Notes under the pieces: model-generated
Told to the model about the DNA's origin: nothing
Database searches by the model: none
Seen by the model: only the letters and a program-made list of their open reading frames with translations
DNA from: Globisporangium splendens
Lineage: Eukaryota > Oomycota > Peronosporomycetes > Pythiales > Pythiaceae
Length of the DNA stretch: 64,000 nucleotides
Assembly: GCA_006386115.1 (NCBI GenBank)
Contig: VFIW01000001.1
Span: forward strand, 62,001-126,000
Direction of reading: 5' to 3'
Shown: in pieces, positions 46,926 through 64,000 of the stretch
Layout of the letters: each line of letters opens with the position of its first letter
How positions within the stretch are numbered: the first letter of the stretch is position 1
Made by a program: the position numbers and the translations under genes

Positions 46926-47533
46926 TGTAAGAGGCTATCCGAGACAGCCTCAAACACAGCACGCACGCTTGCGCTTGAGAGGAAGACTTGAGAGGAACTT
47001 GGCAAAAATGCAACTGAATTGAAATGAGCTTATGGTTCCTGACACTACATGTAAAACACCACTAGGGCTCCTAGAGGTTTTATAACTAAAACCTAAACAT
47101 GCACAATAAAACCTATGAATCTGGTATATAAAACCTTGGCTACACTGAGGTTGAACCCAGGGGATCTTCGAGAAACTTGAACTTGAAGTCCCGTGGAAAA
47201 TTCCCTGCAAAGTGATTGGCTACAGCCACTCACTTTAGGTGGCAGAGACACGTCGGTCTCATCACCAGTGCAGCTTCCCAAGTGGGAACCATCACTCACG
47301 TGTCTAGAGTACTGTTGTGCGTAATCACGCCGAATCTCAATGATTGCGAGCGACCAACACGCAACTCAGACACAGATTGCTCTGACGTCAGACGATGACG
47401 TCACCTGTGCATGTGGGGATCACTTTTATGTGTTTCACCCAATATCTTCGCACCCACAATGCACTTCCACAAGGTGGTGTGCGACACACACAAAGAGCCA
47501 CCTTGCATGTAATGGCAGCCTTAGCCCATTACA
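46926..47533 (-). repeat. 3' LTR of Gypsy element A
   Basis: 608 bp from TGTAAGAGG to CCCATTACA (plus orientation), nearly identical to the 609 bp LTR at 61907-62515 and alignable with 57162-57817. The right edge is followed by TCATCCCTCCCTT, a polypurine tract on the minus strand, which fixes this as the 3' LTR. A palindromic TGTAATGG...CCATTACA pair lies at its right end (47508-47533). Confidence 0.85.
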
Positions 47534-47546
47534 TCATCCCTCCCTT
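47534..47546 (-). promoter_or_regulatory. Polypurine tract of element A
   Basis: Minus-strand AAGGGAGGGATGA directly against the LTR; the plus-strand-synthesis primer of reverse transcription. Confidence 0.75.
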
Positions 47547-47609
47547 AAAGTTCCATCACGGACTTTACTTCTTTCGGAAGAGGTACCCGCTCTCACTTTC
47601 CAATTGACC

Positions 47610-48659
47610 ATGAAGCGATCAAGCGACCAAGTGAAGCGCGAAGAACAGCCCGAGCCGAAGCGGCAGCGGACGACTCCCGGCTTGTACGACATCTCCGCTA
47701 TTCGCAAGAAGCGTGGAGGACGTCGGTTCTACAAGGAGTTGTTCTTCCTCTGGCGCAAGATGTCCGGCAGCGACGATCCTGGCCAGTCCAGCACAGCGAA
47801 GCTCGAGTCGTGGAAGACGTTTGTCCGACTCGAGAACGAGAGTCTTGTCGAGCGTTTGCTAGGGAACCTAGGAGGCACGCTCGAGAACGACCATAAAGAG
47901 CTTGGCTCTAGTCGTTCTAGTGCTCGCGAGAGCACTACAAGCTCTGTTCGTAACTGTGAACCACGTCGGGAACATCAGACTGAAGAGTCTCTCGAGGTTC
48001 CCACGTGTCCGAGTCCGGCGGACAGCCAAGCCACCGTACTCTGTAGAAGCGTTGACGGTTCAACGACTTCTCTCCTCGACGACGAGTCGATCGATCCTCG
48101 TGATCGACTATCGACTCAACGATCCAGCGACGCTCTCCCTGATGATCGATCAGAGGAGGTGGGGCTGAACGCGAAAACGATTGAGCGACTCTGGAAGTGG
48201 AAGAGTGCTCACCGCGCTCAGATCGAGGCTCTTGAAGTTCGCAACGCGGTACTCGAAGACCGGTGCGAAAGCCTCGAAGACCGGTTGAAGGAACATGAGT
48301 CGAAGATCGACTTGCTCTTCGATGGTCTTGCCCAGCGTTCGGCAATGGAGTCACATTTCGAACAAAGGTTCGAGAAGATTCAAGCCGAGCTTGAACGACT
48401 CCAGAAGGCTGAGAAAGCTCGTGATGCGTATCACGAACGTCTACTGCGCTCTGTGGAAGAGGCAGGGGTTTCTCTTGAGATACTTCGGAAGGAGTATCAT
48501 GGTCGCCTTCTCGCGTTGGAGGCAATAAAGGACGAGTCCTTTGATGTGCTTCAGCGCCTTTATGCCGAGAAGAAGCTCCATGGCGATGAGTTACAGACTC
48601 TTCGCGAGCTGGTGGAGCGACTTCAGGATCGACTTGATCGTCTGGCAAAGGCTCTATAG
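47610..48659 (+). CDS. Antisense coiled-coil-like ORF of element A
   Basis: 349 aa on the strand opposite to pol, starting 77 nt inside the 3' LTR edge. N-terminal block: MKRSSDQVKREEQ, KRQRTTPGLYDISAIRKK, FYKELFFLWRK, then SWKTFVRLENE. An acidic/Ser-rich middle follows, then a long heptad region (IERLWKWKSAHRAQIEAL, LEDRLKEHESKIDLLFDG, LRELVERLQDRLDRLAK) that should form a coiled coil. The last 725 bp (47935-48659) are antisense to the integrase linker and chromodomain of pol. The N-terminal block lies outside the overlap and is still conserved in elements C and D, which argues for real coding. No known domain recognised. The basic KRxR could be a nuclear signal. Confidence 0.65.
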   Translation: MKRSSDQVKREEQPEPKRQRTTPGLYDISAIRKKRGGRRFYKELFFLWRKMSGSDDPGQSSTAKLESWKTFVRLENESLVERLLGNLGGTLENDHKELGSSRSSARESTTSSVRNCEPRREHQTEESLEVPTCPSPADSQATVLCRSVDGSTTSLLDDESIDPRDRLSTQRSSDALPDDRSEEVGLNAKTIERLWKWKSAHRAQIEALEVRNAVLEDRCESLEDRLKEHESKIDLLFDGLAQRSAMESHFEQRFEKIQAELERLQKAEKARDAYHERLLRSVEEAGVSLEILRKEYHGRLLALEAIKDESFDVLQRLYAEKKLHGDELQTLRELVERLQDRLDRLAKAL

Positions 48660-50470
48660 GGTTCGCTGACCCACTTGGAAGGTAAGGCTTTAGTCTACCT
48701 ACGTAGAACGTAGGGTGTAGTCGCATGCGTTTAGGAATGTCTAGTGTGTAGGCATCACCATTGCATTTCACTACCCTGAACGGTCCAATATATCTTGGCA
48801 GAAGTTTCGAACTCCCCAAGTTAGACACTGCGTGTTCAGGCAGGTTCGCCGTGCTGAGCAATACAAGATCATTGATCTTATATACTTGCTTGTTCTTCCT
48901 TCCACTCCTATCTGCTTGTTCCTTTTGCAGATCCTGAGCCTTTGCAATTGCGTCTCGAACAAACCTCACAACGGCTTGTCTCCTCACAATAAAGTCATCG
49001 ACTTGCTGTTCCTCACGACTTGTTAGGTCGTTGAGGGGTTTCATCGAGTCAAAGTTGGCTTTTAACTCTGTGACAGCATTCAGGTCCGACTGTGGCTCCT
49101 TAGCCGTAGTCCCTCCCCCACTTAAGGTAGAGACCTCACCCATTATGGAAGCAGGCACTCGAGGGTGAATGCCATAGTTCACATAAAATGGAGAGTGACC
49201 CGTCGAGACATGCGTGGAGTTGTTCAACGCAAACTCGACAAGAGGGAGAAACTCACTCCACTCTTTGAAAGACGTCGCATAACTGCGCAACACGTCTTCC
49301 AGGACACGATTCACTCGTTCAGTTTGACCGTCTGTCTCTGGGTGTGCTGCTGTTGACATGGATAGTTTTGTATCCAAAATGCCAAACAGAGTTCGCCAAA
49401 ACCTAGACGTAAACCGAGTGTCACGGTCTGATACGATCTCCGAGGGCAGACCATGTAGACGGAACACCACGTCTACAAAGACTTTCGCAGTCATCTCTGC
49501 CGAGATCTTATCCGAGACCGGAGTAAGATGCACCATCTTACTAAATCGGTCCACAAACACCAGGATGCCATTCCTGCCGTGTTTGTCTCTTGGAAGTCCA
49601 AATATGAAATCCATACTCACGGACTTCCAACTGTCCTGAGGGACAGGTAATGAACGAAGTGGAGCCCGAGTAGAGCCGGATGGCTTAACTCTTTGGCACA
49701 CTTCGCAAGTACGCACATACTTGCGAACCCACTTGTACATGTGAGGCCAGTAGTAATCTCGAGACAAGTTGAGAAACGTTTTCTCACGTCCGAGATGGCC
49801 ACTCGAAGGACCGTCATGATACTCGTACAAGAGTCGATGACGCAGACCTTCGTCGTTGGGGACAACGATCCTCGCTGGATCCCCTTCGTCAACCGTATAG
49901 TACAGCAGCTCATTGTGCATGCTGTAACGGTGAACACGCGATCTTGCTCTTGGTGGGAGGTTTTGGAGTGCCTTGTCTGAGGGATTCTTGAAATACTTGA
50001 TCAGTTCTTGGCATGCTTCGTCTTGCTTGTATCCCTCAGTGATCTCTTCTTGGACTGTGCTTGTCACTCCCGTAGCAATCGCGCTGACGTCTTCACAGAG
50101 TCGACACGCTCCGTTCGTGTCGTCACTCTTGTTCTTCGGATCATAATCCGGACGTCTTGACAGCGCATCGGCAAGAATGTTTGACTTGCCGGGCTTATAA
50201 TGTACAACAAAGTTGTACTCAGCGAAGAAGGAAAACCATCTTGCCATTCTTTGCGATAGGTGAGGCGTCTTTACAGCTGTCCGCAGTGATGCGTGATCAG
50301 TGTAAATAGCGAACTGCTTTTCACCGAGCAAATAGACTCGGAACTTCGCCAATGCATACTTCATGGCCAATAGTTCCTTGTCATGGACCGGATAGTTCCG
50401 TTCTGCGGGCCTGAGTTGTCGTGACTGGTACGACACAACTCTTTCTTTGCCCTCATCATCGTGTTGCATC
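47935..50470 (-). CDS. Gypsy pol of element A, RNase H to chromodomain, cut by element B
   Basis: Open from the junction at 50470 to the stop at 47935. It starts inside RNase H (the frame enters at MQHDDEGKERVVSYQSR after the LTR) and continues with YTDHASLRTA and ILADALSRRPDYD. The integrase has its zinc-binding H2C2 part (EYHDGPSSGHLGREKTF, CEVCQRVK) and a DDE core (SMDFIFGLP, IVSDRDTRF, HPETDGQTERVN). The GPY/F-like end is followed by a low-complexity linker and a chromodomain (FYRVRWLGCPPDSDTWEP). No stop or frameshift is seen in this part. The missing N-terminal RT, protease and gag should lie right of element B, beyond the window. Confidence 0.85.
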
Positions 50471-51018
50471 TGTAACCGGACACTTCCGAGTTACGCAGCA
50501 CGGTACGTGTGTGAGGAAGCGTGTGCACGACTTCTCTCAAGGACTCTGTTCCAAGAGCTGTTGCCTGCTTCCTGCAGTGCAACGATCGGTTACCTATAGA
50601 TCTCTATAGAGTAACCGTCAATAACTAAAGACTTAGTCAGAGGTAAAAATGGAACTGTTTATTTGTTGGGGGTTGCCCTTTGCAGGATACCCTGAGTTAT
50701 CTTTAGTTCACTATCTAGCATAGTGAACCTCCGCTTATTTCAATGTGGACATAAGTGGATGGCTCTGAATTGCCGTGTTATTCAATTGGTCTAAAAGCAT
50801 ATAGTTTTAGCCTATGAGAGTCGTGTCTGTGACCGACCTCTAATCAGAGTAGCTTGGCTACCTTTGTGGTTCGAGTAAGTGCGGCGAACCTAATGGATCG
50901 GCTGCTTTGGTGTTTCTCGTAGCTAAGTACGGAAACTTTAGTTGCATGCGGACTTAGTCCAATGCCAACAGATTGAGCTAAGTTGCTGCGGTGCAACTTA
51001 GCGTGTGACCCCGTTACA
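50471..51018 (-). repeat. 3' LTR of Gypsy element B
   Basis: 548 bp from TGTAACCGGACAC to CCCGTTACA, unrelated in sequence to the A/C/D LTRs. It is backed by CCACCCCCCACCT (minus-strand polypurine tract). It cuts the A pol frame after CGTGTTGCATC. In element C the same pol site continues CATCAAGGCGCAACC, so GCATC (50466-50470) is the likely target-site duplication. Confidence 0.85.
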
Positions 51019-51031
51019 CCACCCCCCACCT
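51019..51031 (-). promoter_or_regulatory. Polypurine tract of element B
   Basis: Minus-strand AGGTGGGGGGTGG immediately inside the 3' LTR. Confidence 0.75.
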
Positions 51032-51183
51032 AAAGTGCGAAACACGGGAGTGGTTTCGAAAGAGTGGTGGCCACGCTACGACGCACGAAGTCGTGGTCAG
51101 AATTCTTCGGGAGAGGCACTGCGAACACGCGTGCAAATCTCTCCGAAAAGCATCGCAACATCACAAGTGTGAACGCACACGTG

Positions 51184-52719
51184 ATGGCGACGAACAAATC
51201 GGTGCGCGAAAAGATCGCCCGAAGCGCGAGCGGTCCTGCAGAAGGACTCGTTCAAAGACTGCAGAAGCTCGGCGCTGAGAAGCGCGAGGCGGCAAGCGCA
51301 AAACAACGCGCTGCCGCTGCGGTCACGTCTGCCACGGAAGACGTGAGCATGAGCGACGACGAGTCGACTCAATCGAAGACTGCTCCTGACGGTGTCAGTG
51401 AGCTGCAATTTGGCGATCTCCCTGCCATCAAGCCGATGAGCAGGGCAAGCGACGCCGATGACGACACGGCAGTCGACTACCAAGAGTACTCACCCGAGGA
51501 AGGGGAGGAAGAGGAAGGCATCACCGTGAGGCGCGACTCCATCGACGAGTGGGTCGAGTATGAGGAGCTGCGTTACGGGAGCGGTAGCCCCGAACTGCAC
51601 GAGTTGGAGCGAAATCCCTCGGCAGACGTCTCGATTTATCGGACGGAGGAAGAGAATGACGTCGCAAAGACTGTCAATGAAAGGGAGAAGGGGGAGGTCA
51701 TCATTACCAACAATGAGACCGGACTGGAACCACCACCAAAAGGTTCCGTCCATTTTTCGCTTCCCGTTGTGCCGCCGCCAAAGGAATGGCCGACAGCGAA
51801 AACCCCGGCAAATTTACTTGCACGGGCGCGGGTTCCACTCGAGAGGTATGACTCCGAGTTCGCACGATGGCGCGAAGCCGATCTGCGAGGACGTGATGGG
51901 GCACTGCGCGTGCACCCGATCCCGGTTATCCTTTACGAAGGTGAGACCGAGGATCAATACGAAACCGCGTTCTTGGCATCAAGAACCGGTGTGAAACGCT
52001 TTGGGGCTGCGCGTACATTGGCCACCGATCCTGGGGCACAACGTAGCCAGCGCATGCAATTCGCTGTGCAGCGCGTACAAAAGTACCGCGAAGCAACAAA
52101 GAGTGATGACCGTGCTCGCACGAGTCTCGGTATTAACAAGCGACAGATGGACGAGTCTCACTCGCCATCAACGCACGCTCAAAAGCGGCGACCATGTCGG
52201 GAACGTCCTCGAGGAGGCGCTCAGCAGGCTCCCATGTGCTCTGCGACAAATCGTATCCACGCCACTTCACAAGGTAGCGGGTGTTCCCCTTGCGCCGCTG
52301 CACACGCAGCAGGCGCTCGACATGGTAGTGGCGCTGTCCCTGCTTATCAATCAGCGGGACCGGTGGCGCCCTACCGCGCTTCAGCATCGGTGGTTGCACC
52401 TGATGCGATGGTTCAGATGGTTCACGCGAACGCATCGTCTTTGGGGGCGCTACAGCAAGACGTCCGTGCCTTTCGCCAGCAATATCTGGACGAGACCTCG
52501 CTGTTAAAGCAGAGGGTGACGGCGCTTGAGACGGAGCTGAAGGAAGCTCGTCAGATGCTGGAGGAGTACCATGTCCGCGGGAAGAACTTCCACGCGAGGT
52601 ACGCTCCGCGAGTGAAGACGCTTTGGGAGAGGCACAACGCGCTCGTGTCTCGATGGGCGGCGTCTGAGCCCCCTGATGAGACCGACGTGCTCCCGCACTG
52701 GGATAAGAATCCGCAGTAG
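51184..52719 (+). CDS. Antisense coiled-coil-like ORF of element B
   Basis: 511 aa on the plus strand from ATG 51184, 166 nt from the LTR edge (the frame is open from 51064, but only via GTG). It is basic at the N-terminus (MATNKSVREKIARSASG), acidic in the middle (YSPEEGEEEEGITVRR), then Pro-rich, and ends in leucine heptads (LLKQRVTALETELKEARQ). The last 587 bp (52133-52719) are antisense to the pol linker/chromodomain. The sequence is not alignable by eye with the A/C/D versions, but its position, strand, general architecture and antisense register are the same. Confidence 0.6.
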   Translation: MATNKSVREKIARSASGPAEGLVQRLQKLGAEKREAASAKQRAAAAVTSATEDVSMSDDESTQSKTAPDGVSELQFGDLPAIKPMSRASDADDDTAVDYQEYSPEEGEEEEGITVRRDSIDEWVEYEELRYGSGSPELHELERNPSADVSIYRTEEENDVAKTVNEREKGEVIITNNETGLEPPPKGSVHFSLPVVPPPKEWPTAKTPANLLARARVPLERYDSEFARWREADLRGRDGALRVHPIPVILYEGETEDQYETAFLASRTGVKRFGAARTLATDPGAQRSQRMQFAVQRVQKYREATKSDDRARTSLGINKRQMDESHSPSTHAQKRRPCRERPRGGAQQAPMCSATNRIHATSQGSGCSPCAAAHAAGARHGSGAVPAYQSAGPVAPYRASASVVAPDAMVQMVHANASSLGALQQDVRAFRQQYLDETSLLKQRVTALETELKEARQMLEEYHVRGKNFHARYAPRVKTLWERHNALVSRWAASEPPDETDVLPHWDKNPQ

Positions 52720-55700
52720 CGTCATGGTAGCGTTTCAGCAAACCCACGTAAAACACGGGGTGCGTTGCCATTCGCGTTGGGAGATCGAGCTTGTAATTCA
52801 AGTCTCCAATCTTCTCCACAACAGTGTACGGCCCGATGAATCGTGGCAACAACTTACTCCCGCTGGGGAGCGTTGTGACTGCATCGTTTGGTAGGTTTTT
52901 AATGCTCAATAGCACTTTATCACCCACACAAAACGTTTGTTTGTTCTTTCTACCCGATTTATCGGCGTAGAGCTTTTGCTTGTCTTGCGCAGCAGCTAGT
53001 TGGTCGCGTACGCGACGCAACAATGCTGCGCGCTCATCGACAAATTGCCGCGCTGCCGCGACGGCTTTGTCTTGCTTTTTCGTTGCTCTCGCAGCGCGTG
53101 CTGCAGAGAGATCTATTTCTGCGCCGGTGGGTGACACCGCGCGCTCTCCCTTTCGTGGCTGACGCTCGCACGAGCAGTCGCCTGATTCTGTCTGAGACTG
53201 GCTATTTTTGGCATGAGTACCGTAACTCGGTACCGTGGGAGATCGATCTATAGGGACACGAGTACCGTAACTCGGTACCGTGGGAGATCGATCTATAGGT
53301 ACACGAGTACCGTAACTCAGTACCGTGGAAGATCGATCTATAGGGACACGAGTACCGTAACTCAGTACCGTGTTTTTCTCTCCAAATGTGGAACGCGTGC
53401 CGTCCGGTAAGACCGTGACAGATTCGAAGTGCGACCGCACAGGCGGCGCATCGCGCGCGTCCACGTGAGCGGTTAACGCCACGTCTGGTGACGGAGGTCG
53501 CGCACTCGCATCGAGCGCAGCGAGTTGCCCTCCCACCGCAGAATATTCGACGCCCTCAAACAGAGTGGCGGGTACGCGCGGGTGCCGCAGCGAGTTAAAA
53601 TAGAACGGAGTCACGGCCGTAGAGGCGTGCTCGCTGCTATTTATAGCAAACTCGGCGTACGGCAGCCAGCGGCTCCAGTCGCGGGGATGATCGACAGCGA
53701 TGCTGCGAAGAATATCCTCGACGACACGGTTTACGCGCTCGGTTTGCCCGTCTGTCTCGGGATGATCGGCAGTGGACATCGCCAGATCTGTGCCGAGCAG
53801 GCGGAAGAGTTCGCGCCAAAAGGCAGCGGTGAAACGCGGGTCCCGGTCTGATACAATAGACTCGGGCAAGCCGTGATAGCGGAACACGTGCTCTAAAAAT
53901 AGGCACGCCGTCTCTTGGGCAGTGACATGCTTGCGCACAGGCGCAACATGCACCATTTTGCTCAGTCGGTCGACGAACACGACGACGCCTGTGTTGCGCG
54001 CCTTGTCTTCCGGGAAACCGAAGACGAAATCCATGCTGACCGACTTCCAGCAATCTTGCGGAATCGGCAGCGGATGCAGCGGCGCTTTGTTCTTGCCCGC
54101 AGGCTTCACGCGCTGGCACTGTTCGCATGAACGTACATAATTGGCCACCCATTTGTACTGGTGTGGCCACCAAAACACATTGGACACTTGCAAGAAGGTC
54201 TTTTCACGCCCCAGATGCCCACTCGCTGGCGCATCGTGAAACTCATGAAGGATCGAAAGTTTCAGATCCTGGTCATGCGGTACATACACACGCGGGTAAT
54301 CGAAGTTGGACAGTTGATGCCACAATAACCCGTCGTGATAACTAAACCGAGCAAGCTTTGACTCGAGTTTGGCAGGCAATGACTCTTTCGACGAGCCGTC
54401 AAAGTGAGCAATCAACAAGCGACATTCATCGTCCTTTGGATAAAGCGACTGAATATTGTCCTTGAGCTTTGTTTGCACTCGACTGATGCTCAGATGCATG
54501 AGATCAGGAGCGCGCTCCGAACACAGAGCGTCGGCGCTGTTGTCAACGCTCGACTCGTAATCTGGACGGCGCGAAAGCGCGTCCGCCAGAACATTTTCCT
54601 TTTCCGGCTTGTATTCGACCCGAAAGTTGAACTCGGAGAAGAATGCAAGCCATCGCGCCATTCGCTGCGACAGATGGGGAGAATTAATCGCGGTCCGCAA
54701 GGACGCGTGATCCGTGTACACAACAAACGGTGTCGCACCCAAAAGGTGGACCCTGAACTTCAAGAGAGCGTACTTGATCGCAAGCAGCTCCTTGTCGTGC
54801 ACAGGATAATTCTTTTCAGCTGCCTTAAGCAGTCTGCTTTGGTATGATACGACGCGCTCATGGCCGTCATCATCCTTCTGCATCAGCGCACAGCCGATTG
54901 CAAAATCGCTGGCATCGCACACGACACTGAAAGCTTTCGTGTGGTCCGGCAACGCCAGGACAGGAGCGCGAACAAGCGACTCCTTCACGTCAATGAATGC
55001 ATTCATGACATCGCTGGTCCAGTCCCATTCGACATCCTTTTTCAAGAGATGCGTGAGCGGACGGACTCTCGCCGCATAGTTGTGGCTGTACTTGTGCAAA
55101 TAGTTTGCCAAGCCAAGCCACTTGCGCAAATCCTTGACGTTCTTTGGGATCGGCCAGTCGGCGATCGCCTTGATCTTCTCTGGGTCCGCGCGGACTCCAG
55201 CTTTGCCAACATAGCACCCCAGGATCGGAATCTCTGAGGCGCCAAAGATGCACTTCTTCAGGTTGCAATACAGACTGTTGTCTCGTAAGCACTGCAACAC
55301 TGAGCGCAAATGTCTCTTGTGCACGTCAACGGCACTGAGATCTCCTTCGGCACGACTGTGCACGAAGATGTCATCGAAGTAGCTCGGTGCGTACGCACGA
55401 TGAGGACGCAGAAGATGCGTTACCAGACGATTGAACGTCGCTGGTGCATTCTTCAGACCTTGCGGCATAACGAGCCACTCCCACAGCATTCCGCTGGGTG
55501 TGCTTACTGCCGTCAAGGGAACGTCACTCTCTCGCATGAGGATCTGATAGAACCCATCCATCAGATCCAATGCTGAGAACACAGTTGAGCCGCCCATGGA
55601 GTCGATCAAGACATCCTTTCTTGGGATCGGTGTTTGTGCCGGAATGGTGGCGGCGTTCAGCTTGTTGAAAGCGTGAACAATGCGCCAGCCACCAGTCGCT

Positions 55701-57161
55701 TTCCGCACACAAAACGTGGGTGAGCTATGTGGAGACTTGCTTTCTCTCACATGACCGGCGAGGGCTCGTTTCGCGAAGAACTCGTCGATAGCCTCAACCT
55801 GCTCGCGGGGCAGCGGCCATTGTCTGGTCACGCAATATTTGCTCCCGGGCTCGAGATCGATCTCGTGCCGTACGCCACGGTCAACGGGCAGGGCACTTGG
55901 CACTTTGTCGGGGAACACATCTTTGAACTCCCACAACAAGTCAAAGTATGGACTGCCTTTCACGGCGTCCCAGTCCTGAGCAGCAAACCGCCTCTGTTTG
56001 TCTGACTCCAAAACACTCTCATCCGCAGTGGACGAGGTGCACAGTTCGCTACGCGTAAACGCGGTAGGAACGACGATCTCGCGGATCTGATCACGCTCTA
56101 GCTCCGTAAGAAAGAGCTCGAAGCTCATTTCTTCGAGGGATACGATCGCCTCAACGGTACTCGGCAGCCCATGGAGCGCCGCAAATTCAGCGAAGAACAC
56201 TTCGTCTGATGCGTTTGCTTCCGGACTGCGCTTTGCGCGTCTGAGTGCCACGTCAACGTGAGCGCGATCTATCGACGGATCCGAGATCCTGTCAAAGGCG
56301 CGCAGCGAAGCTGCAGCTGCGTCGAGAGATGGGGCAATCGTGTGCGAGGCGGCCGTTTCCTCAGCAACAGATGCCAATGCACTGTCTCTCTTGCGAGCTG
56401 ACAACTTGCGTCGCCCTCGTCGGTTGATGCGAACACGCGACCTCGCGGTTCTGAGCTCCAGTACTGCACCGTCAGGGTGGTACGAGCTGGCTGACGCGTG
56501 TACACCTGTACTGTCGCTGTCACTTGCGGGGGCTGGCTCGGATGCTCTGGAGCCGCACACTTGCGCACCAGTGTCCACGTCTGGACTTTCTGGCGCTTCC
56601 GCACAAACTGGGCTACCTGCCACAGTGTATCGCTTCGCTGGGCTACCTGCCTCAGCGCATCTTCTTGCTCGGCTCTCTGCCGCAGCGTGTGTGTTTGAAG
56701 CGGGGCTACCTGCCGCCGCGTGTCTTCCAGCTGGGCTCCCTGCCGCAGCGTGTTCAATGCTCACATCCATAGCGTGGAAATATTCCCGCAATCTTCGCTC
56801 TTCATCAGAGGAAGGGGTGGAGCTCCCGATTGTGCGTGCTCGCCAATCGATCCAAGGCTGATGTTTCGCCAGCCAAGGCATTCCTAGGATGAGGTCGTAC
56901 TTCGACCCCATCGCTAGTACTACGAATGTTTCTTTGCAGACAAAGTCGCAAAATCTGAAAGAGAGTTCAACTCGAACTCCTTCAGTGTGTACTGTCGACC
57001 CATCGGCCAGACGTACGATCATCTTCTCGCGCTTGCCAGTGTGGACAAGTCGCTCATACGCTTGCAGACTCTGTTTCAGAGCTGACTTAGAGACGAAGTT
57101 CTGTGACGCACCGCAGTCAACAAGAACCGTCATTTTCTTCTCATAGCCCTTCACATCGGCG
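52133..57161 (-). CDS. Gypsy pol of element B, protease to chromodomain, cut by element C
   Basis: About 1676 open codons from the LTR junction at 57161 to the stop at 52133. It has a retropepsin with DCGA instead of the usual D(S/T)GA (VLVDCGASQNFVS, near 57118), then GMPWLAKHQPWIDW. A long Ala/Gly/Ser/Pro insert of tandem repeats (56609-56757) follows, then reverse transcriptase (YFDDIFVHS, near 55375) and RNase H (CDASDFAIGCALMQ). The integrase has H2C2 (EFHDAPASGHLGREKTF, CEQCQRVK) and DDE (SMDFVFGFP, IVSDRDPRF, HPETDGQTERVN). A minisatellite-coded insert (53215-53373) and a chromodomain (YLVKWRGYDLSQSTWEP) close it. No stops: a recent element apart from the insertion. Its upstream gag lies right of D and C. 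Confidence 0.9.
53215..53373 (-). repeat. 45 bp minisatellite inside the B pol ORF
   Basis: Four tandem copies of a 45 bp unit starting GAGTACCGTAACTC at 53215, 53260, 53305 and 53350. On the minus strand it encodes repeats of SYGTRVPIDRS(S/P)TV in the integrase C-terminal extension. The period is a multiple of three, so copy-number change keeps the frame. GGTACC and AGATCGATCT palindromes occur in each unit. Confidence 0.9.
56609..56757 (-). repeat. Ala-Gly-Ser-Pro coding repeat between protease and RT of B
   Basis: Imperfect tandem units carrying GGGCTACCTGCC/GGGCTCCCTGCC, coding (A)AAGSPA-type repeats in the pol frame. It forms a spacer after the protease and is open in other minus frames too. 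Confidence 0.7.
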
Positions 57162-57817
57162 TGTAATGGGGCGCTGTTCCAAACAGTCCCCAAAACACGG
57201 CACACACGCTTGTGCGACTTGAGGAAGCGATCTCCCGACTTGGAGGGAGAGAAGACGACTTGAGTACTTGAGGGTAAAATTGCAACTGAATTGAAAATGC
57301 TTATGGTTCCTGTCGCTACTTGTAAATGAACCCCAAGGGCTCCTAGAGGTTTTATAACTAAAACCTAAACATACACAATAAAACCTATGAATCTGATATA
57401 TAAAACCTTGGGTACACTGAGGTTGAACCCACGAGATCTTCGAGAAGCTTGAACTTGAAGTCCCGTGGAAAATTCCCTGCAAAGTGATTGGCTACAGCCA
57501 CTCACTTTAGGTGGCAGAGACACGTTGGTCTCATCACCTGTGCAGTTTCCCAAGTAGGAACCATCACTCAGTACTTGATTAGTACATGGACGCCATCACT
57601 ATGTACTGATTAGTACATGTGAACAACATTCTGCACTGATCAGCACAGAGAGCGCTCGTGACGTCATGGGATGAGGTCACATGTGCATGAGGGGACTGTC
57701 GTACCGTGATCTGTGTTGTTGTTTGTCTCTCCACAATGCACACTGAAGGTGGTGTGTGGCACACTAGATCTGAGAACAGATCCACCTTCATGTAATGGCT
57801 AAGTATAGCCCATTACA
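57162..57817 (-). repeat. 3' LTR of Gypsy element C
   Basis: 656 bp from TGTAATGGGGCG to GCCCATTACA. Most of it aligns with the A and D LTRs, but it differs at its left end and in a TA(C/T)TGATTAGTACATG-type repeated block (about 57575-57650) absent from A and D. It interrupts the protease-upstream part of B pol. CGGCG (57157-57161) is the expected target-site duplication. Confidence 0.8.
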
Positions 57818-57830
57818 TCATCCCCTCCTT
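57818..57830 (-). promoter_or_regulatory. Polypurine tract of element C
   Basis: Minus-strand AAGGAGGGGATGA adjoining the LTR. Confidence 0.75.
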
Positions 57831-57893
57831 AAAGCCAAAAGTACCTTGCGTACTTTTGCAGACCTTTCGGAGCAGTTCACTTTCCAATCGGCC

Positions 57894-59039
57894 ATGAAGC
57901 GACCAAGTGACCAAGTGAACCAAGGTGAAGAACGTCCGTTGTCCAAGCGACAGCAGACAGCTCCAGAACTCTTCGACGTATCCTCCATTCTGAAGAAGAA
58001 GGGGGATCTCGAGTTCTACAAGGAGCGGTTCTTCAGTTGGCGTCGGATCAACGATCGCGATGATCCGAACCAACACATCGCAGCCCAGAGAGACTCATGG
58101 CGAACATTCGTTCGTCTTGAGAACGAGAACAAGATGGAGCGTCTTCTTCGCCGTGGCAATGCTCGTGCCCAAAGAAGAACTCCTGCTGACGACAGAGCGA
58201 ATCCCAGCTCTGGTCGTCGTAGTGTCGCCCCTGGCGACGCTACAAGCGGTTCTCGTAGCTGCGGACCACGTCGGGAACATCAGACTCCATCGTCTGATGT
58301 GGTTCCCACGTGTCCGAGCTCGGTGGATATCCACGCCACCGAACTCTGTAGAAGCGTTGATGGTTCAACTGCTTCTTTCCTCGACGATGAGTCGGTCGAT
58401 CTTGATGATCAACAATCGACTGAACCACCCAGCGATGCTCTCCCTGAGAGTCTAACAACGGGGGTGGGGCTGAACGAGAAAACGATTGAGCGACTCTGGA
58501 AGCGGAAGAGTGCTCACCGTGGGCAAATCGAGGCTTTGCAGCAGCGTTGTTCGACGCTTGAGGAACGCTGCGAGAGTCTCGAGAACCTTGTCGCCGATCA
58601 TGAGTCGAAGATCGATGTCCCGACAGAAGGTTGTGCCCAGTGTTCGGCTTTGGAGTCCCGTTTCGAGGAACGGTTCCAACAAGTTCAGGGCGAACTTGTC
58701 CGACTCCAGAAGAACGAGAAGTCTCGTGAGTTGGCTCACGATCGCCTTTTGCGCTCTGTGGAAGAGGCAGGTTCGGCTCTCGAGGTACTTCGTGGTGAGT
58801 ACCATTCTCGTCTTCAAGCGTTGGAGTCAGTGAAGGACCAATCCTTCGACGTCCTGCAACTCCTGTACGCCGAGAAGAATCTCCAGAGCGATGAGCTGTT
58901 TGCTCTTCGCAATCAAGTGGAGAAACTTCACGATCAGCTCGATCGTTTGCGGAAGATCTCGCAGGATCCGCAGATCCACTTGGAAGGTAAGGCTTTAGTC
59001 TACCCACATAAAATGTCGGGTGTAGACGCATGCGTGTAG
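57894..59039 (+). CDS. Antisense coiled-coil-like ORF of element C
   Basis: 381 aa, ATG again exactly 77 nt from the LTR edge. Compared with element A many codons differ, but the residues line up: MKRPSDQVNQGEE, KRQQTAPELFDVSSILKK, FYKERFFSWRR, DDPNQ, SWRTFVRLENE, then KTIERLWKRKSAHRGQIEAL and coiled-coil heptads (LRNQVEKLHDQLDRLRK). The C-terminus is longer because the A stop is absent. It overlaps pol by 800 bp (58240-59039). The frame stays open although the C pol on the other strand is broken further upstream. Confidence 0.65.
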   Translation: MKRPSDQVNQGEERPLSKRQQTAPELFDVSSILKKKGDLEFYKERFFSWRRINDRDDPNQHIAAQRDSWRTFVRLENENKMERLLRRGNARAQRRTPADDRANPSSGRRSVAPGDATSGSRSCGPRREHQTPSSDVVPTCPSSVDIHATELCRSVDGSTASFLDDESVDLDDQQSTEPPSDALPESLTTGVGLNEKTIERLWKRKSAHRGQIEALQQRCSTLEERCESLENLVADHESKIDVPTEGCAQCSALESRFEERFQQVQGELVRLQKNEKSRELAHDRLLRSVEEAGSALEVLRGEYHSRLQALESVKDQSFDVLQLLYAEKNLQSDELFALRNQVEKLHDQLDRLRKISQDPQIHLEGKALVYPHKMSGVDACV

Positions 59040-61906
59040 GTATGTCTAGCGTATAGGCATCACCATTGCATTTTACTACCTTGAACGGTCCAATGAACCT
59101 TGGCAGAAGCTTCGAGCTTCCCAAGTTGGACACTGCGTGTTCAGGTAGATTTGCCGCACTAAGCAATACAAGATCATTGATCTTATACACTTGCTTGTTC
59201 TTCCTTCCGCTCTTGTCTGCTTGTTCCTTTTGCAGATCCTGAGCCTTCGCGATTGCGTCTCGAACAAACCTCACAACGGCTTGTCTCCTCACAACAAAGT
59301 CATCGACTTGCTGTTCCTCACGACTTGTTAGGTCGTTGAGGGGTTTCATCGAGTCAAAATTGGCTTTTAACTCGGCAACAGCATTCAGGTCCGACTTGTG
59401 GTCATTAGCAGTAGTCCCGCCCCACGTAAGGGAGAGACACATCCCATATGGAGCAGGCACACGAGCGTGAATGCCCTAGTTCACTAAAATGGAGACTAGT
59501 GACATCGACGACATGCGTGGAGTTGGTCAACGCAAACTCGCGAGAGGAGAGAAAAAAGCAAGCCACTCTTTGAAAGACGTTGCGTAGCTGCGCAACACGT
59601 CTTCAAGGACACGATTCACTCGTTCAGTTTGACCATCCGTTTCAGGATGTGCCGCTGTCGACATGGCCAACTTGGTGTCCAGAAGTCCGAACAGTGCACG
59701 CCAGAACTTGGACGTAAACCGAGTGTCACGGTCAGACACGATCTCAACGGGCAGGCCATGTAGACGGAATACGACGTCTACAAAGACCTTGGCCGTCATT
59801 TCGGCTGAGATCTTGTCCGAAACCGGCGCAAGATGGACCATCTTGCTGAATCGGTCCACAAACACAAGGATGCCATTGCGTCCGTGTTTGTCACGCGGAA
59901 GTCCGAATATGAAATCCATACTCACAGACTTCCAACTGTCCGATGGGACAGCCAATGAACGAAGTGGGGCCTGAGTGGAACCAGAAGGTTTCACTCGTTG
60001 GCAGATCTCGCAAGTCCTCACATACTTGCGAACCCACTTGTACATGTGTGGCCAGTAGTAATCCCGGGAAAGACTGAGAAACGTCTTCTCACGTCCGAGA
60101 TGGCCACCCGAAGGACTGTCATGGTACTCATACAAGAGTCGATGACGCAGACCTTCGTCGTTGGGAACAACAACCCTTGCTGTATCCCCGTCTTCAACCG
60201 CGTAGTACAACAACCCATTGTGTACTCGGAAGCGGTGAACTCGCGACCTTGTGCGCGACGGAAGACCTTGCAGTGCTTTGTCCGAAGGGTCCTTGAAATA
60301 CTTCAACAAGTCCTGACATGTTTCGTCAGACTTGTACCCTCCGACGATCTCTTCTCGCGCTGTGGTCGTAGCTTGCACTGCGATCGCTTGAACATCTTCA
60401 CAGAGTCGACACGCTCCGTCCGTGTCTTCACTCTTGGTCTTCGGATCATAATCCGGACGTCTTGAAAGCGCATCGGCTAAGATGTTCGTCTTGCCTGGCT
60501 TGTAGTGTACAACAAAGTTGTACTCTGCAAAGAAAGAGAACCATCTCGCCATTCTTTGCGACAAGTGAGGAGTCTTCACTGCCGTACGCAGCGACGCATG
60601 ATCTGTGTAGATCGCAAAGCGCTCCTCTCCAAGCAGATACACACGGAACTTGACCAAAGAATACTTCATCGCCAGAAGTTCCTTGTCGTGAACTGGGTAG
60701 TTCCGTTCTGCGGGTCGGAGTTGTCGTGACTGATACGACACAACTCGCTCATGACCCTCATCATCGTGTTGCATCAAGGCGCAACCGATGGCATAGTCGC
60801 TTGCATCGCAAACCACATGAAAAGGCTTGTCGTGGTTTGCGATTGCCAGCACGGGAGCTTCTCGCAGACTCCTCTTCACTTCGGCAAATGCCATTTGATG
60901 GTCACTGGACCACTCCCACTCAATGTCCTTCTTCAGGAGCTGTGTGAGCGGTTGCACCAACGCTGCATAATTGCGCGTGTACTTGTGCAAGTAATTGGCC
61001 AGACCCAACCATTGTCGTAGCTGTTTGACATTCTGAGGCACAGGCCAATCGTCAATAGCTTTGACCTTCTCCGGATCGACTCGAACACCATGCTTTCCCA
61101 CAAAGCAGCCGAGAACGGGGATCTCCGGTGCAAAGAATATGCACTTCTTCAGGTTAGCGTAGAGCTTGTTCTCTCGCATGACCTGAAAGACTTGACGGAG
61201 ATGGTCAAGATGAACATCAACGTCAGACTTTTCACCCGTGGTTTTACTATGAACGAATATATCGTCAAAGTAGCTCGGTGCAAACCCTCTCAATGGACGA
61301 AGTAAATTCGTGACCATCCTATTGAAAGTTGCAGGAGCGTTCTTCAGTCCCTGTGGCATCACCAACCATTCCCACAGCATACCACTCGGGGTACTCACTG
61401 CAGTTAGTGGTACATCGTCTTCGCGCATTCGAATCTGATAGAACCCATCTTTCAGATCGATAGCACTAAAGACAGTACTGCCAACCATTCCATCAAGGAT
61501 CATATCCTTGCGTGGAACCGGAGTTTGGGCTGGAATTGTCGCGTCGTTCAGCTTGTTGAAAGCGTGAACGATGCGCCAACCACCAGTTGCCTTCTTCACA
61601 CAGAAGGTTGGGCTACAATGTGGAGACTTGCTCTCTCGCACATGCCCAGCCTCAGCACGTTGCGCAAAGAACTCGTCGATCGCAACGACTTGTTCTCTTG
61701 GCAACGGCCACTGCCGTGTGATACAATACTTCGTGCCAGGAAGTATGTCAATCTCATGACGAACGCCTCTATCGAATGGCAGTTCGTCTGGCACCTTGTC
61801 AGGGAATATGTCCTCATATTCCTTGACAAGTTCATACACGGGGTTCGTTTTGAGAGCGTCCCACGACTGCTCATCAAACCTTTCCTTCCGTGTCTTCTCA
61901 TCGAAC
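58240..61906 (-). pseudogene. Gypsy pol of element C, broken, cut by element D
   Basis: From the D junction at 61906 the frame runs through RT (YFDDIFVHS), RNase H (CDASDYAIGCALMQ) and most of integrase (SMDFIFGLP, IVSDRDTRF, HPETDGQTERVN) to 59527. There it leaves frame in FKEWLAFFSPLASLR. Small indels at about 59460-59570 destroy the segment that in A reads EFLPLVEFALNNSTHVSTG. The C-terminal part resumes at 59460 and runs to 58240 (integrase end, linker, chromodomain FYRVRWRGYPPSSDTWEP). The element is therefore non-autonomous. The gag/protease part lies right of D. Confidence 0.85.
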
Positions 61907-62515
61907 TGTAAGAGGCTATCCGAGACAGCCTCAAACACGGCACGCACGCTTGCGCTTGAAGAGGAAGACTTGAGAGGAACTTGGCAAAAATGCAACTGAA
62001 CTGAAATGAGCTTATGGTTCCTGACACTACATGTAAAACACCACTAGGGCTCCTACACGCTTTATAACTAAAACCTAAACATGCACAATAAAACCTATGA
62101 ATCTGATATATAAAACCTTGGGTACACTGAGGTTGAGCCCAGGGGATCTTCGAGAAACTTGAACTTGAAGTCCCGTGGAAAATTCCCTGCAAAGTGATTG
62201 GCTACAGTCACTCACTTTAGGTGGCAGAGACACGTCGGTCTCATCACCAGTGCAGTTTCCCAAGTAGGAACCATCACTCACGTGTATAGAGTACTGTTGT
62301 GCGTAATCACGCCGAATCTCAATGATTGCGAGCGACCAACACTCAACTCAGACACGGATTGCTCTGACGTCAGACGATGACGTCACAAGTGCATGTGGGG
62401 ATCACTATTATGTGTTTCACCCAATATCTTCGCACCCACAATGCATTTCCACAAGGTGGTGTGTGACACACACAAAGAGCCACCTTGCATGTAATGGCAG
62501 CCTTAGCCCATTACA
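61907..62515 (-). repeat. 3' LTR of Gypsy element D
   Basis: 609 bp from TGTAAGAGG to CCCATTACA, nearly identical to 46926-47533. It cuts C pol just upstream of RT (frame resumes at FDEKTRKERFDEQSW). CGAAC (61902-61906) is the expected target-site duplication. The polypurine tract at 62516-62528 shows that it belongs to the element on its right. Confidence 0.85.
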
Positions 62516-62528
62516 TCATCCCTCCCTT
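62516..62528 (-). promoter_or_regulatory. Polypurine tract of element D
   Basis: Minus-strand AAGGGAGGGATGA adjoining the LTR, identical to that of element A. Confidence 0.75.
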
Positions 62529-62591
62529 AAAGTTCCATCACGGACTTTACTTCTTTCGGAAGAGGCACCCGCTCTCACTTTCCAATTGACC

Positions 62592-63641
62592 ATGAAGCGA
62601 TCAAGCGACCAAGTGAAGCGCGAAGAACAGCCCGAGCCAAAGCGGCAGCGGACGACTCCCGGCTTGTACGACATCTCCGCTATTCGCAAGAAGCGTGGAG
62701 GACGTCGGTTCTACAAGGAGTTGTTCTTCCTCTGGCGCAAGATGTCCGGCAGCGACGATCCTGGCCAGTCCAGCACAGCGAAGCTCGAGTCGTGGAAGAC
62801 GTTTGTCTGACTCGAGAACGAGAATCTTGTCGAGCGTTTGCTAGGGAACCTAGGAGGCACGCTCGAGAACGACCATAAAGAGCTTGGCTCTCGTCGTTCT
62901 AGTGCTCGCGAGAGCACTACAAGCTCTGCTCGTAACTGTGAACCACGTCGAGAACATCAGACTGAAGAGTCTCTCGAGGTTCCCACGTGTCCGAGTCCGG
63001 CGGATAGCCAAGCCACCGTACTCTGTAGAAGCGTTGACGGTTCAACGACTTCTCTCCTCGACGACGAGTCGATCGATCCTCGTGATCGACTATCGACTCA
63101 ACGATCCAACGACACTCTCCCTGATGATCGATCAGAGGAGGTGGGGCTGAACGCGAAAACGATTGAGCGACTCTGGAAGTGGAAGAGTGCTCACCGCGCT
63201 CAGATCGAGGCTCTTGAAGTTCGCAACGCGGTACTCGAAGACCGGTGCGAAAGCCTCGAAGACCGGTTGAAGGAGCAGGAGTCGAAGATCGACTTGCTCT
63301 TCGATGGTCTTGCCCAGCGTTCGGCAATGGAGTCACGTTTCGAACAGAGGTTCGAGAAGATTCAAGCCGAGCTCGAACGACTCCAGAAGGCTGAGAAAGC
63401 TCGTGATGCGTATCACGAACGTCTACTGCGCTCTGTGGAAGAGGCAGGGACTTCTCTTGAGATACTTTGGAAGGAGTATCATGGTCGCCTTCTCGCGTTG
63501 GAGACAATAAAGGACGAGTCCTTTGATGTGCTTCAGCGCCTTTATGCCGAGAAGAAGCTCCATGACGATGAGTTACAGACTCTTCGCGAGCTGGTGGAGC
63601 GACTTCAGGATCGACTTGATCGTCTGCCAAAGGCTCTGTAG
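62592..63641 (+). pseudogene. Antisense coiled-coil-like ORF of element D, one nonsense codon
   Basis: Same ORF as at 47610-48659 (349 codons), ATG 77 nt from the LTR edge. It is interrupted by a single TGA at 62808-62810 where element A has CGA (TFVRLENE becomes TFV, stop, LENE). After the stop the frame is open to 63641. The C-to-T change lies outside the overlap with pol, so pol is unaffected. Confidence 0.75.
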
Positions 63642-64000
63642 GGTTCGCTGACCCACTTGGAAGGTAAGGCTTCAGTCTACCTACGTAGAACGTAGGGTGT
63701 AGTCGCATGCGTGTAGGAATGTCTAGTGTGTAGGCATCACCATTGCATTTAACTACCCTGAACGGTCCAATATATCTTGGCAGAAGTTTCGAACTCCCCA
63801 AGTTGGACACTGCGTGTTCAGGTAGATTAGCCGTGCTAAGTAATACAAGATCATTGATCTTATATACTTGCTTGTTCTTCCTTCCGCTCCTATCTGCTTG
63901 TTCCTTTTGCAGATCCTGAGCCTTTGCAATTGCGTCTCGAACAAACCTCACAACGGCTTGTCTCCTCACAATAAAGTCATCGACTTGCTGTGCCTCACGA
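62917..64000 (-). CDS. Gypsy pol of element D, C-terminal part, continues beyond the window
   Basis: Open from the right edge of the window (REAQQVDDFIVRRQAVV) to the stop at 62917: integrase C-terminal GPY/F-like part (LLPRYIGPFRVVKCNGD, HPTFYVGRLKPYLP), linker and chromodomain (FYRVRWLGYPPDSDTWEP). Nearly identical to element A. The upstream pol, gag and 5' LTR lie right of the window. Confidence 0.85.
   Translation of the reverse strand, partial: REAQQVDDFIVRRQAVVRFVRDAIAKAQDLQKEQADRSGRKNKQVYKINDLVLLSTANLPEHAVSNLGSSKLLPRYIGPFRVVKCNGDAYTLDIPTRMRLHPTFYVGRLKPYLPSGSANPTEPLADDQVDPEVAPPAREESVTHRHGASSRHKGAEAHQRTRPLLSPTREGDHDTPSKVSQEKSLPLPQSAVDVRDTHHELSQPSGVVRARLESSRTSVRNVTPLPNAGQDHRRASRSSTPAPSTGLRGFRTGLRVPRCELQEPRSERGEHSSTSRVAQSFSRSAPPPLIDHQGECRWIVESIVDHEDRSTRRRGEKSLNRQRFYRVRWLGYPPDSDTWEPRETLQSDVLDVVHSYEQSL

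What the first reader, a model, noticed from the sequence alone, without database searches (positions are those of the whole stretch)
47610..63641. Convergent antisense gene overlapping the chromodomain end of Gypsy pol, present in four elements
Seen: all four Gypsy elements carry a plus-strand ORF of 349-511 codons that starts just inside the 3' LTR and runs head-on into pol, overlapping it by 725, 587, 800 and 725 bp. The antisense register is the same in every case (first codon positions face each other, and the wobble of one strand faces the middle position of the other). The ATG lies exactly 77 nt from the LTR edge in A, C and D. Known: some plant Tat/Ogre-type Gypsy elements carry an antisense extra ORF before the 3' LTR. 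I know of no description in oomycetes, nor of such deep overlap with the chromodomain. Inference: an LTR-driven antisense product, possibly a coiled-coil regulator or structural partner.
Basis: partly seen in the sequence, partly recalled or inferred. Interest (0 to 1): 0.9.

Follow-up and report, generated by a model that had tools for sequence, protein, structure and literature searches.

The report
Antisense coiled-coil gene in oomycete retrotransposons
Jumping genes in a plant-pathogenic water mould carry an extra gene on the opposite DNA strand that shares several hundred bases with the element's own enzyme gene, and sequence comparison indicates that each strand keeps a different part of the shared stretch for its own protein.

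Summary
The genome matches Globisporangium splendens, an oomycete. Elements A, B and C carry an intact plus-strand antisense ORF (aORF; 349, 511, 381 aa) running head-on into minus-strand Gypsy pol over 725, 587 and 800 bp in one register. D has the same layout, but its codon 73 is TGA.

The aORF is a protein gene under purifying selection. Among four diverged A/C-family sequences, dN/dS is 0.22-0.35 in the non-overlapping N-terminus. Within the overlap the constraint is divided: opposite the chromodomain pol is constrained (0.19-0.55) and the aORF is not (1.14-1.75); opposite the pol linker the aORF is constrained (0.25-0.29) and pol is not (1.23-2.22). AlphaFold gives a helical N-domain, a disordered segment facing the chromodomain and a long helix facing the linker. 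The B-type protein, with no clear sequence relation, has the same layout.

An exact oomycete INR motif stands 17 nt before the ATG in A, C and L071; B has none. Antisense ORFs are known in plant and fungal elements; my searches listed none in oomycetes. Best reading: a coiled-coil accessory protein, perhaps a nuclear regulator. Expression and function are untested.

The parts
47610..48659 (+). aORF of element A, 349 aa: basic N-terminus (1-21), helical domain (about 29-86), disordered 90-177, coiled coil 180-348
   Evidence: dN/dS
47593..47599 (+). INR-like motif TCACTTT, 17 nt before the ATG of A (candidate core promoter)
   Evidence: definition YCAYTYY from PMC3599244
47537..47550 (-). polypurine tract of A beside the 3' LTR (read on plus as TCCCTCCCTTAAAG)
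46978..47536 (-). 3' LTR of A (outer end approximate)
47935..50469 (-). pol of A (5' part missing); overlap with the aORF 47935-48659
47944..48126 (-). chromodomain of A pol, facing the disordered aORF segment
48127..48681 (-). pol linker between SH3_Tf2-1 and chromodomain, facing the aORF coiled coil (48147-48653)
51184..52719 (+). aORF of element B, 511 aa: folded region about 190-310, disordered 309-403, long helix 406-491
52133..57205 (-). pol of B (1690 aa); chromodomain 52175-52327; overlap with the aORF 52133-52719
57894..59039 (+). aORF of element C, 381 aa
57877..57883 (+). INR-like motif TCACTTT, 17 nt before the ATG of C
58240..59460 (-). 3' part of C pol with SH3 and chromodomain (58246-58431); overlap 58240-59039
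62592..63641 (+). aORF of element D, interrupted by TGA at codon 73 (62808-62810)
62575..62581 (+). INR-like motif TCACTTT upstream of the D aORF
62917..63969 (-). 3' part of D pol with SH3 and chromodomain (62926-63108)

Best explanation
Each of these chromodomain Gypsy elements carries a second, protein-coding gene on the strand opposite pol (shown by selection for the A/C family; weaker for B). In the A/C family it is probably transcribed from a short INR-type core promoter between the polypurine tract and the ATG, next to the 3' LTR (inferred). It encodes an accessory protein with an N-terminal folded domain, a disordered middle and a C-terminal coiled coil (predicted). The last two thirds in the A/C family, and the last two fifths in B, are written over the end of pol, with a division of labour: the chromodomain faces the disordered segment, and the coiled coil faces the linker between the SH3 and chromo domains (constraint shown in the A/C family; layout only in B). 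The protein most likely oligomerises through the coil and, in the A/C family, enters the nucleus through its basic N-terminus and acts on the element's own expression or integration, as is proposed for HTLV-1 HBZ and the Grande gene23 product (inferred). My probabilities: selected protein gene 0.95; own promoter in the A/C family 0.55; nuclear regulator rather than particle or RNP component 0.4.
For: N-terminal dN/dS 0.22-0.35 in six pairs from four sequences. Overlap split: pol 0.19-0.55 and aORF 1.14-1.75 in the chromodomain half; aORF 0.25-0.29 and pol 1.23-2.22 in the coil half; the same switch in raw counts by codon position. Control: in pol outside the overlap the aORF register gives 3.50 with 17 and 8 stops. 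B-type N-terminus 0.41 against 0.55-1.40 in the five other frames. Same-protein recoding of pol rarely leaves the frame open, and in A, C and D never reached the helix-former content or the low Pro+Gly of the real coil (0 of 3,000 each). In-frame stops absent in 99 of 116 A/C-type and 63 of 81 B-type genome matches. AlphaFold models of both types with the same layout. INR motif in 28 of 30 A-family loci and in C, L069, L071 and L072. Bipartite NLS-like pattern in 14 of 24 A-type proteins.
Against: No transcript or protein data. 4 of 30 A-family loci carry the same TGA at codon 73 on different backgrounds: if this allele was copied between elements, copies with a truncated aORF have moved. The NLS-like pattern is missing in 10 of 24 A-type proteins, including window C, and in 17 of 17 B-type proteins. 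B and L074 have no INR match. Heptad periodicity of the A and B coils does not exceed recoded controls (310 and 501 of 3,000). The dN/dS method ignores the overlap, N-terminal dS is near saturation in the three pairs with A (1.5-2.0), and the six pairs come from four sequences. Both models have pTM 0.30 and no fold match.
Confidence: 0.6

Rival explanations
1. The antisense frame is open by accident: pol codon usage leaves few stops on the other strand, and no protein is made.
For: Long antisense open stretches occur elsewhere too, e.g. 199 codons in another register over B pol.
Against: Selection in the N-terminus, which has no pol on the other strand; in the coil half differences sit at the aORF wobble and not at the pol wobble; recoding controls.
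Confidence: 0.03
2. The protein is a structural or RNP component: the coiled coil oligomerises, as in LINE-1 ORF1p, and the basic N-terminus binds RNA or helps particle assembly or nuclear import of the cDNA.
For: Basic N-terminus and long coil; weak profile matches of the coil to trimeric coils including LINE-1 ORF1p (E 0.03-0.13).
Against: Matches are generic for coiled coils; a particle protein would be expected on the sense RNA with Gag; no nucleic-acid-binding domain was found.
Confidence: 0.3
3. The product that matters is the antisense RNA: it pairs with the end of pol RNA and feeds silencing or blocks pol expression; the protein is secondary.
For: A plus transcript would be complementary to 587-800 nt of pol; sense and antisense small RNAs from LTR elements are reported in Phytophthora infestans (PMC3522703, passages).
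Against: RNA pairing does not need a kept reading frame or a protein-level signature.
Confidence: 0.12
4. The ORF is a captured host gene or a piece of another element nested in reverse.
For: Nested insertions are common here; deposited models P0097 and P0104 join a Gag to the B-type aORF.
Against: In C37 (the P0104 contig) the gag is cut by a B-type 3' LTR, so that fusion is an annotation artefact (the P0097 place was not read). The aORF stands at a fixed distance from the 3' LTR in A, C and D and shares its second half with pol. Capture of the N-terminal block alone long ago is not excluded.
Confidence: 0.05

Closest known systems
Antisense accessory ORFs of plant Gypsy elements (aORF-3R: maize Grande gene23, RIRE2, Retand, PvRetro13)
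   Same: Antisense to gag-pol, at the 3' LTR end, kept in most copies; Grande gene23 product nuclear with its own promoter
   Different: Those are described as lying between pol and the 3' LTR, often in a long spacer; here 725-800 bp (587 in B) are shared with pol and constraint is split. No TRP28 domain in the Pfam scans. Different kingdom; chromodomain elements
brtn of Boty-like Gypsy elements (Botrytis, Sclerotinia)
   Same: Antisense extra ORF in a non-plant Gypsy element
   Different: Its sequence and its position relative to pol were not compared; the 2011 paper is not held and was not read
HBZ of HTLV-1
   Same: Antisense gene at the 3' LTR end of a retroelement; nuclear protein (passages); its bZIP coiled coil is recalled
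   Different: No bZIP domain found here; no sequence relation shown; transcription start not known here
Chronos elements of oomycetes (PMC5348765)
   Same: Oomycete Gypsy elements with a chromodomain
   Different: Chronos has an added archaeal/plant-type RNase H, not found in B pol; the paper's main text does not contain 'antisense' or 'additional ORF'

Membership tests
Antisense accessory ORF of Gypsy elements (aORF-3R) | ORF antisense to pol at the 3' LTR end of the element | tested here: met
   (pol strand, polypurine tract, ATG position)
Antisense accessory ORF of Gypsy elements (aORF-3R) | Present in most copies of the family, conserved like a coding gene | tested here: met
   no in-frame stop in 99 of 116 and 63 of 81 scored matches; dN/dS. 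Only matches to the aORF were searched, so copies lacking it are not counted
Antisense accessory ORF of Gypsy elements (aORF-3R) | Lies between pol and the 3' LTR without sharing pol | tested here: not met
   overlap 587-800 bp
Retand-type antisense ORF | TRP28 domain (PF04195) | tested here: not met
   not among Pfam matches to E 1
Grande gene23 type | Own promoter upstream of the antisense gene and nuclear product | tested here: inconclusive
   INR motif in the A/C family, none in B; NLS-like pattern in 14 of 24 A-type and 0 of 17 B-type proteins
brtn of Boty | Sequence similarity to BRTN | not tested
   the sequence was not fetched
HBZ | Basic leucine zipper | tested here: not met
   no bZIP among Pfam matches to E 1; generic coiled coil only
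Chromodomain Gypsy element (host element) | Integrase followed by a C-terminal chromodomain | tested here: met
   (Chromo above cut-off in A, B, C and D)
Chronos | Additional archaeal/plant-type RNase H | tested here: not met
   none among Pfam matches of the whole B pol; pol of A, C and D is only partly in the window

The most novel reading that the evidence does not exclude
A coiled-coil protein was born by overprinting: the strand opposite the loose linker between integrase and chromodomain became a long coiled coil joined to a new N-terminal domain, and selection now holds the antisense protein more tightly than pol in that stretch. The layout exists in two Gypsy families whose aORF proteins show no recognisable sequence relation outside the stretch facing the chromodomain, so it arose twice or is old enough to have lost all similarity.
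Probability: 0.5. Interest if true: 0.75.

Novelty: new variant of a known kind. Interest (0 to 1): 0.62.

Why it matters
Antisense accessory genes of retrotransposons are mostly recorded as open frames of unknown function in a spacer. Here the gene shares DNA with pol, so one alignment shows which protein is constrained at each codon, and the answer switches between the two halves of the overlap. That gives a natural case for how overlapping genes divide a stretch of DNA, a link between oomycete elements and retroviral antisense genes such as HBZ, and a promoter candidate that strand-specific data could test at once.
Full report
What the window is. The window is C1:62001-126000 of a 53.31 Mb assembly in 195 contigs. 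The A aORF is 97% identical over its length to a deposited Globisporangium splendens protein, and the assembly fits the draft genome of strain rgcb-1: 53.3 Mb, 195 scaffolds over 10 kb (PMC7163027, whole text). G. splendens is an oomycete and a plant pathogen.

The elements. Minus-strand pol pieces with SH3_Tf2-1 and chromodomain occur in A, B, C and D; RNase H and integrase domains in A, B and C. B has a pol of 1690 aa from protease to chromodomain. The left LTR of each is the 3' LTR: pol points to it and a polypurine tract lies on its internal side. Same-orientation pairs of the D-type LTR about 6.84 kb apart occur in contigs C67, C39 and C120, with an aORF just inside the left one. No complete element was read.

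The antisense ORF. A 47610-48659 (349 aa), B 51184-52719 (511 aa), C 57894-59039 (381 aa), D 62592-63641 with TGA at codon 73. The A and B aORFs end 22 and 4 nt short of the Pfam SH3 codons of pol, and the C aORF runs 53 nt into them, so the overlap covers the chromodomain and the linker between SH3 and chromodomain (ORF ends, domain positions).

Copies. The protein searches of the genome scored 116 A/C-type matches of 488 candidates, 99 without in-frame stop, and 81 B-type matches, 63 without (best candidates only, frameshifts not counted). Of the 40 A/C-type rows at 62-66% identity, 39 have no stop. Read from the ATG, the aORF is full length in 26 of 30 A-family and 25 of 30 B-family loci, which are the best matches; of the five B failures two have no recognisable start. 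The pol frame is open over at least the overlap length in 29 of 30 and 28 of 30. The four broken A-family copies carry the same CGA-to-TGA change at codon 73 and share no other private change. The stop either recurred or was passed between copies by recombination; in the second case truncated copies have moved, and the protein is not strictly needed in cis.

Selection. Four diverged A/C-family sequences were compared: window A, window C, L071, L072. L070 and L073 were aligned but left out of the pairs (A-type start with C-type coil); D and L069 gave no intact ORF and were left out. In the order A-C, A-L071, A-L072, C-L071, C-L072, L071-L072 the non-overlapping N-terminus has dN/dS 0.25, 0.23, 0.22, 0.35, 0.28, 0.33; dS is 1.5-2.0 in the three A pairs, near saturation, so their bootstrap limits are not reliable. 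Chromodomain half (72-74 codons): pol 0.36, 0.19, 0.31, 0.26, 0.55, 0.25; aORF 1.62, 1.14, 1.46, 1.75, 1.14, 1.28, mostly not distinguishable from 1. Coil half (165 codons): aORF 0.28, 0.25, 0.25, 0.29, 0.25, 0.25; pol 2.22, 1.23, 1.58, 1.65, 1.94, 1.53, with bootstrap limits above 1 in four of six pairs. C-L072 has few differences outside the coil half. Raw counts show the same switch: aORF wobble over aORF middle differences, summed over five pairs, is 0.46-0.59 at residues 121-180 and 2.15-3.32 at residues 211-330. Values above 1 partly reflect the constraint of the other frame. Control: pol outside the overlap (A versus C) has pol dN/dS 0.09 and 0.16, and the aORF register there gives 3.50 with 17 and 8 stops. 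For B, one diverged relative was available (L074, 170 aligned codons of the N-terminus): 0.41, against 0.55-1.40 in the five other frames. The split was not tested on diverged B sequences.

Single-sequence controls. Random same-protein recoding of pol leaves the antisense frame open in 20, 29 and 4 of 20,000 trials for A, B and C. Recoded pol never matches the helix-former content or the low Pro+Gly of the real coil in A, C and D (0 of 3,000 each); for B, 4 and 7 of 3,000 do. Heptad periodicity separates C (13 of 3,000) and D (91), not A (310) or B (501). The A segment facing the chromodomain does not differ from recoded controls in helix formers (1,263 of 3,000).

Protein. Pfam gives nothing above cut-off for the aORFs. 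AlphaFold with 24 sequences (pTM 0.30) gives for A helices within 29-86 (block pLDDT 63-85 from residue 31), disorder at 90-177 and helix 180-348 (block pLDDT 80-98). With 17 sequences (pTM 0.30, mean pLDDT 60) B has a folded region at about 190-310, disorder at 309-403 and helix 406-491. In both, the disordered stretch faces the chromodomain and the helix the pol linker (positions). A-type and B-type profiles align only over the stretch facing the chromodomain. A bipartite NLS-like pattern occurs in 14 of 24 A-type proteins (not in window C) and 0 of 17 B-type proteins.

Spread. A/C type: 81 proteins, 62 from G. splendens and 19 from unnamed environmental sets, down to 40% identity. B type: 34, of which 28 from G. 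splendens and 6 environmental, down to 36%. A profile search added two G. splendens proteins and no other named species. The hosts of the environmental relatives are unknown.

Promoter. The oomycete INR is defined as YCAYTYY and FPR as MWTTTNC (PMC3599244, passages). TCACTTT stands 17 nt before the ATG in A, C and L071, where most of the sequence between the polypurine tract and INR has diverged; the FPR slot has one or two mismatches (my count). Of the 30 A-family loci 28 have it; L031 and L036 read TTACTTT. INR matches also occur by chance, for example at -380 and -190 of A. B and L074 have none in 700 and 766 nt. The deposited gene models were predicted with transcriptome hints, weak evidence of expression at best.

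Comparison. Plant elements (Grande, RIRE2, Retand, PvRetro13) and fungal Boty carry antisense ORFs described as lying between pol and the 3' LTR; Grande gene23 is nuclear with its own promoter (PMC7264820 and PMC11963269, passages; section 5 of the first). HBZ is the retroviral parallel. The oomycete survey PMC5348765 describes Chronos; 'antisense' does not occur in its main text (passages). My searches listed no paper whose title or abstract start describes an antisense ORF in an oomycete element or one that shares pol at the chromodomain; the library is open-access only and most listed papers were not opened.

Verdict. The gene is real and under selection (0.95). It works like the plant antisense accessory ORFs and differs in its deep, divided overlap with pol, its protein and its host: a new variant of a known kind. 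A nuclear coiled-coil regulator is the most likely function (0.4), with a particle or RNP role as the main rival (0.3).

Noticed in passing
L070 (C119), L073 (C154) versus window A and C: aORFs with an A-type first half and a C-type coil: subfamilies recombine within the aORF.
   Followed up: partly
window 62808-62810; L013, L027, L030, L032: The same TGA at aORF codon 73 in 4 of 30 A-family loci on different backgrounds.
   Followed up: partly
L074 (C37:10536-11836): A B-type element inserted into a gag; deposited protein P0104 (and probably P0097) wrongly fuses Gag with the B-type aORF.
   Followed up: partly
window 53215-53372: A 45-bp unit repeated 3.5 times inside B pol between the integrase core and SH3 region, keeping the frame.
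   Followed up: no
window 56262-56861: A 199-codon open stretch antisense to B pol in a different register; not tested for coding.
   Followed up: no
window 48127-48681 (minus strand): The pol linker between SH3 and chromodomain has dN/dS of 1.23-2.22 in the pol frame, so pol protein there is driven or freed by the antisense gene.
   Followed up: yes
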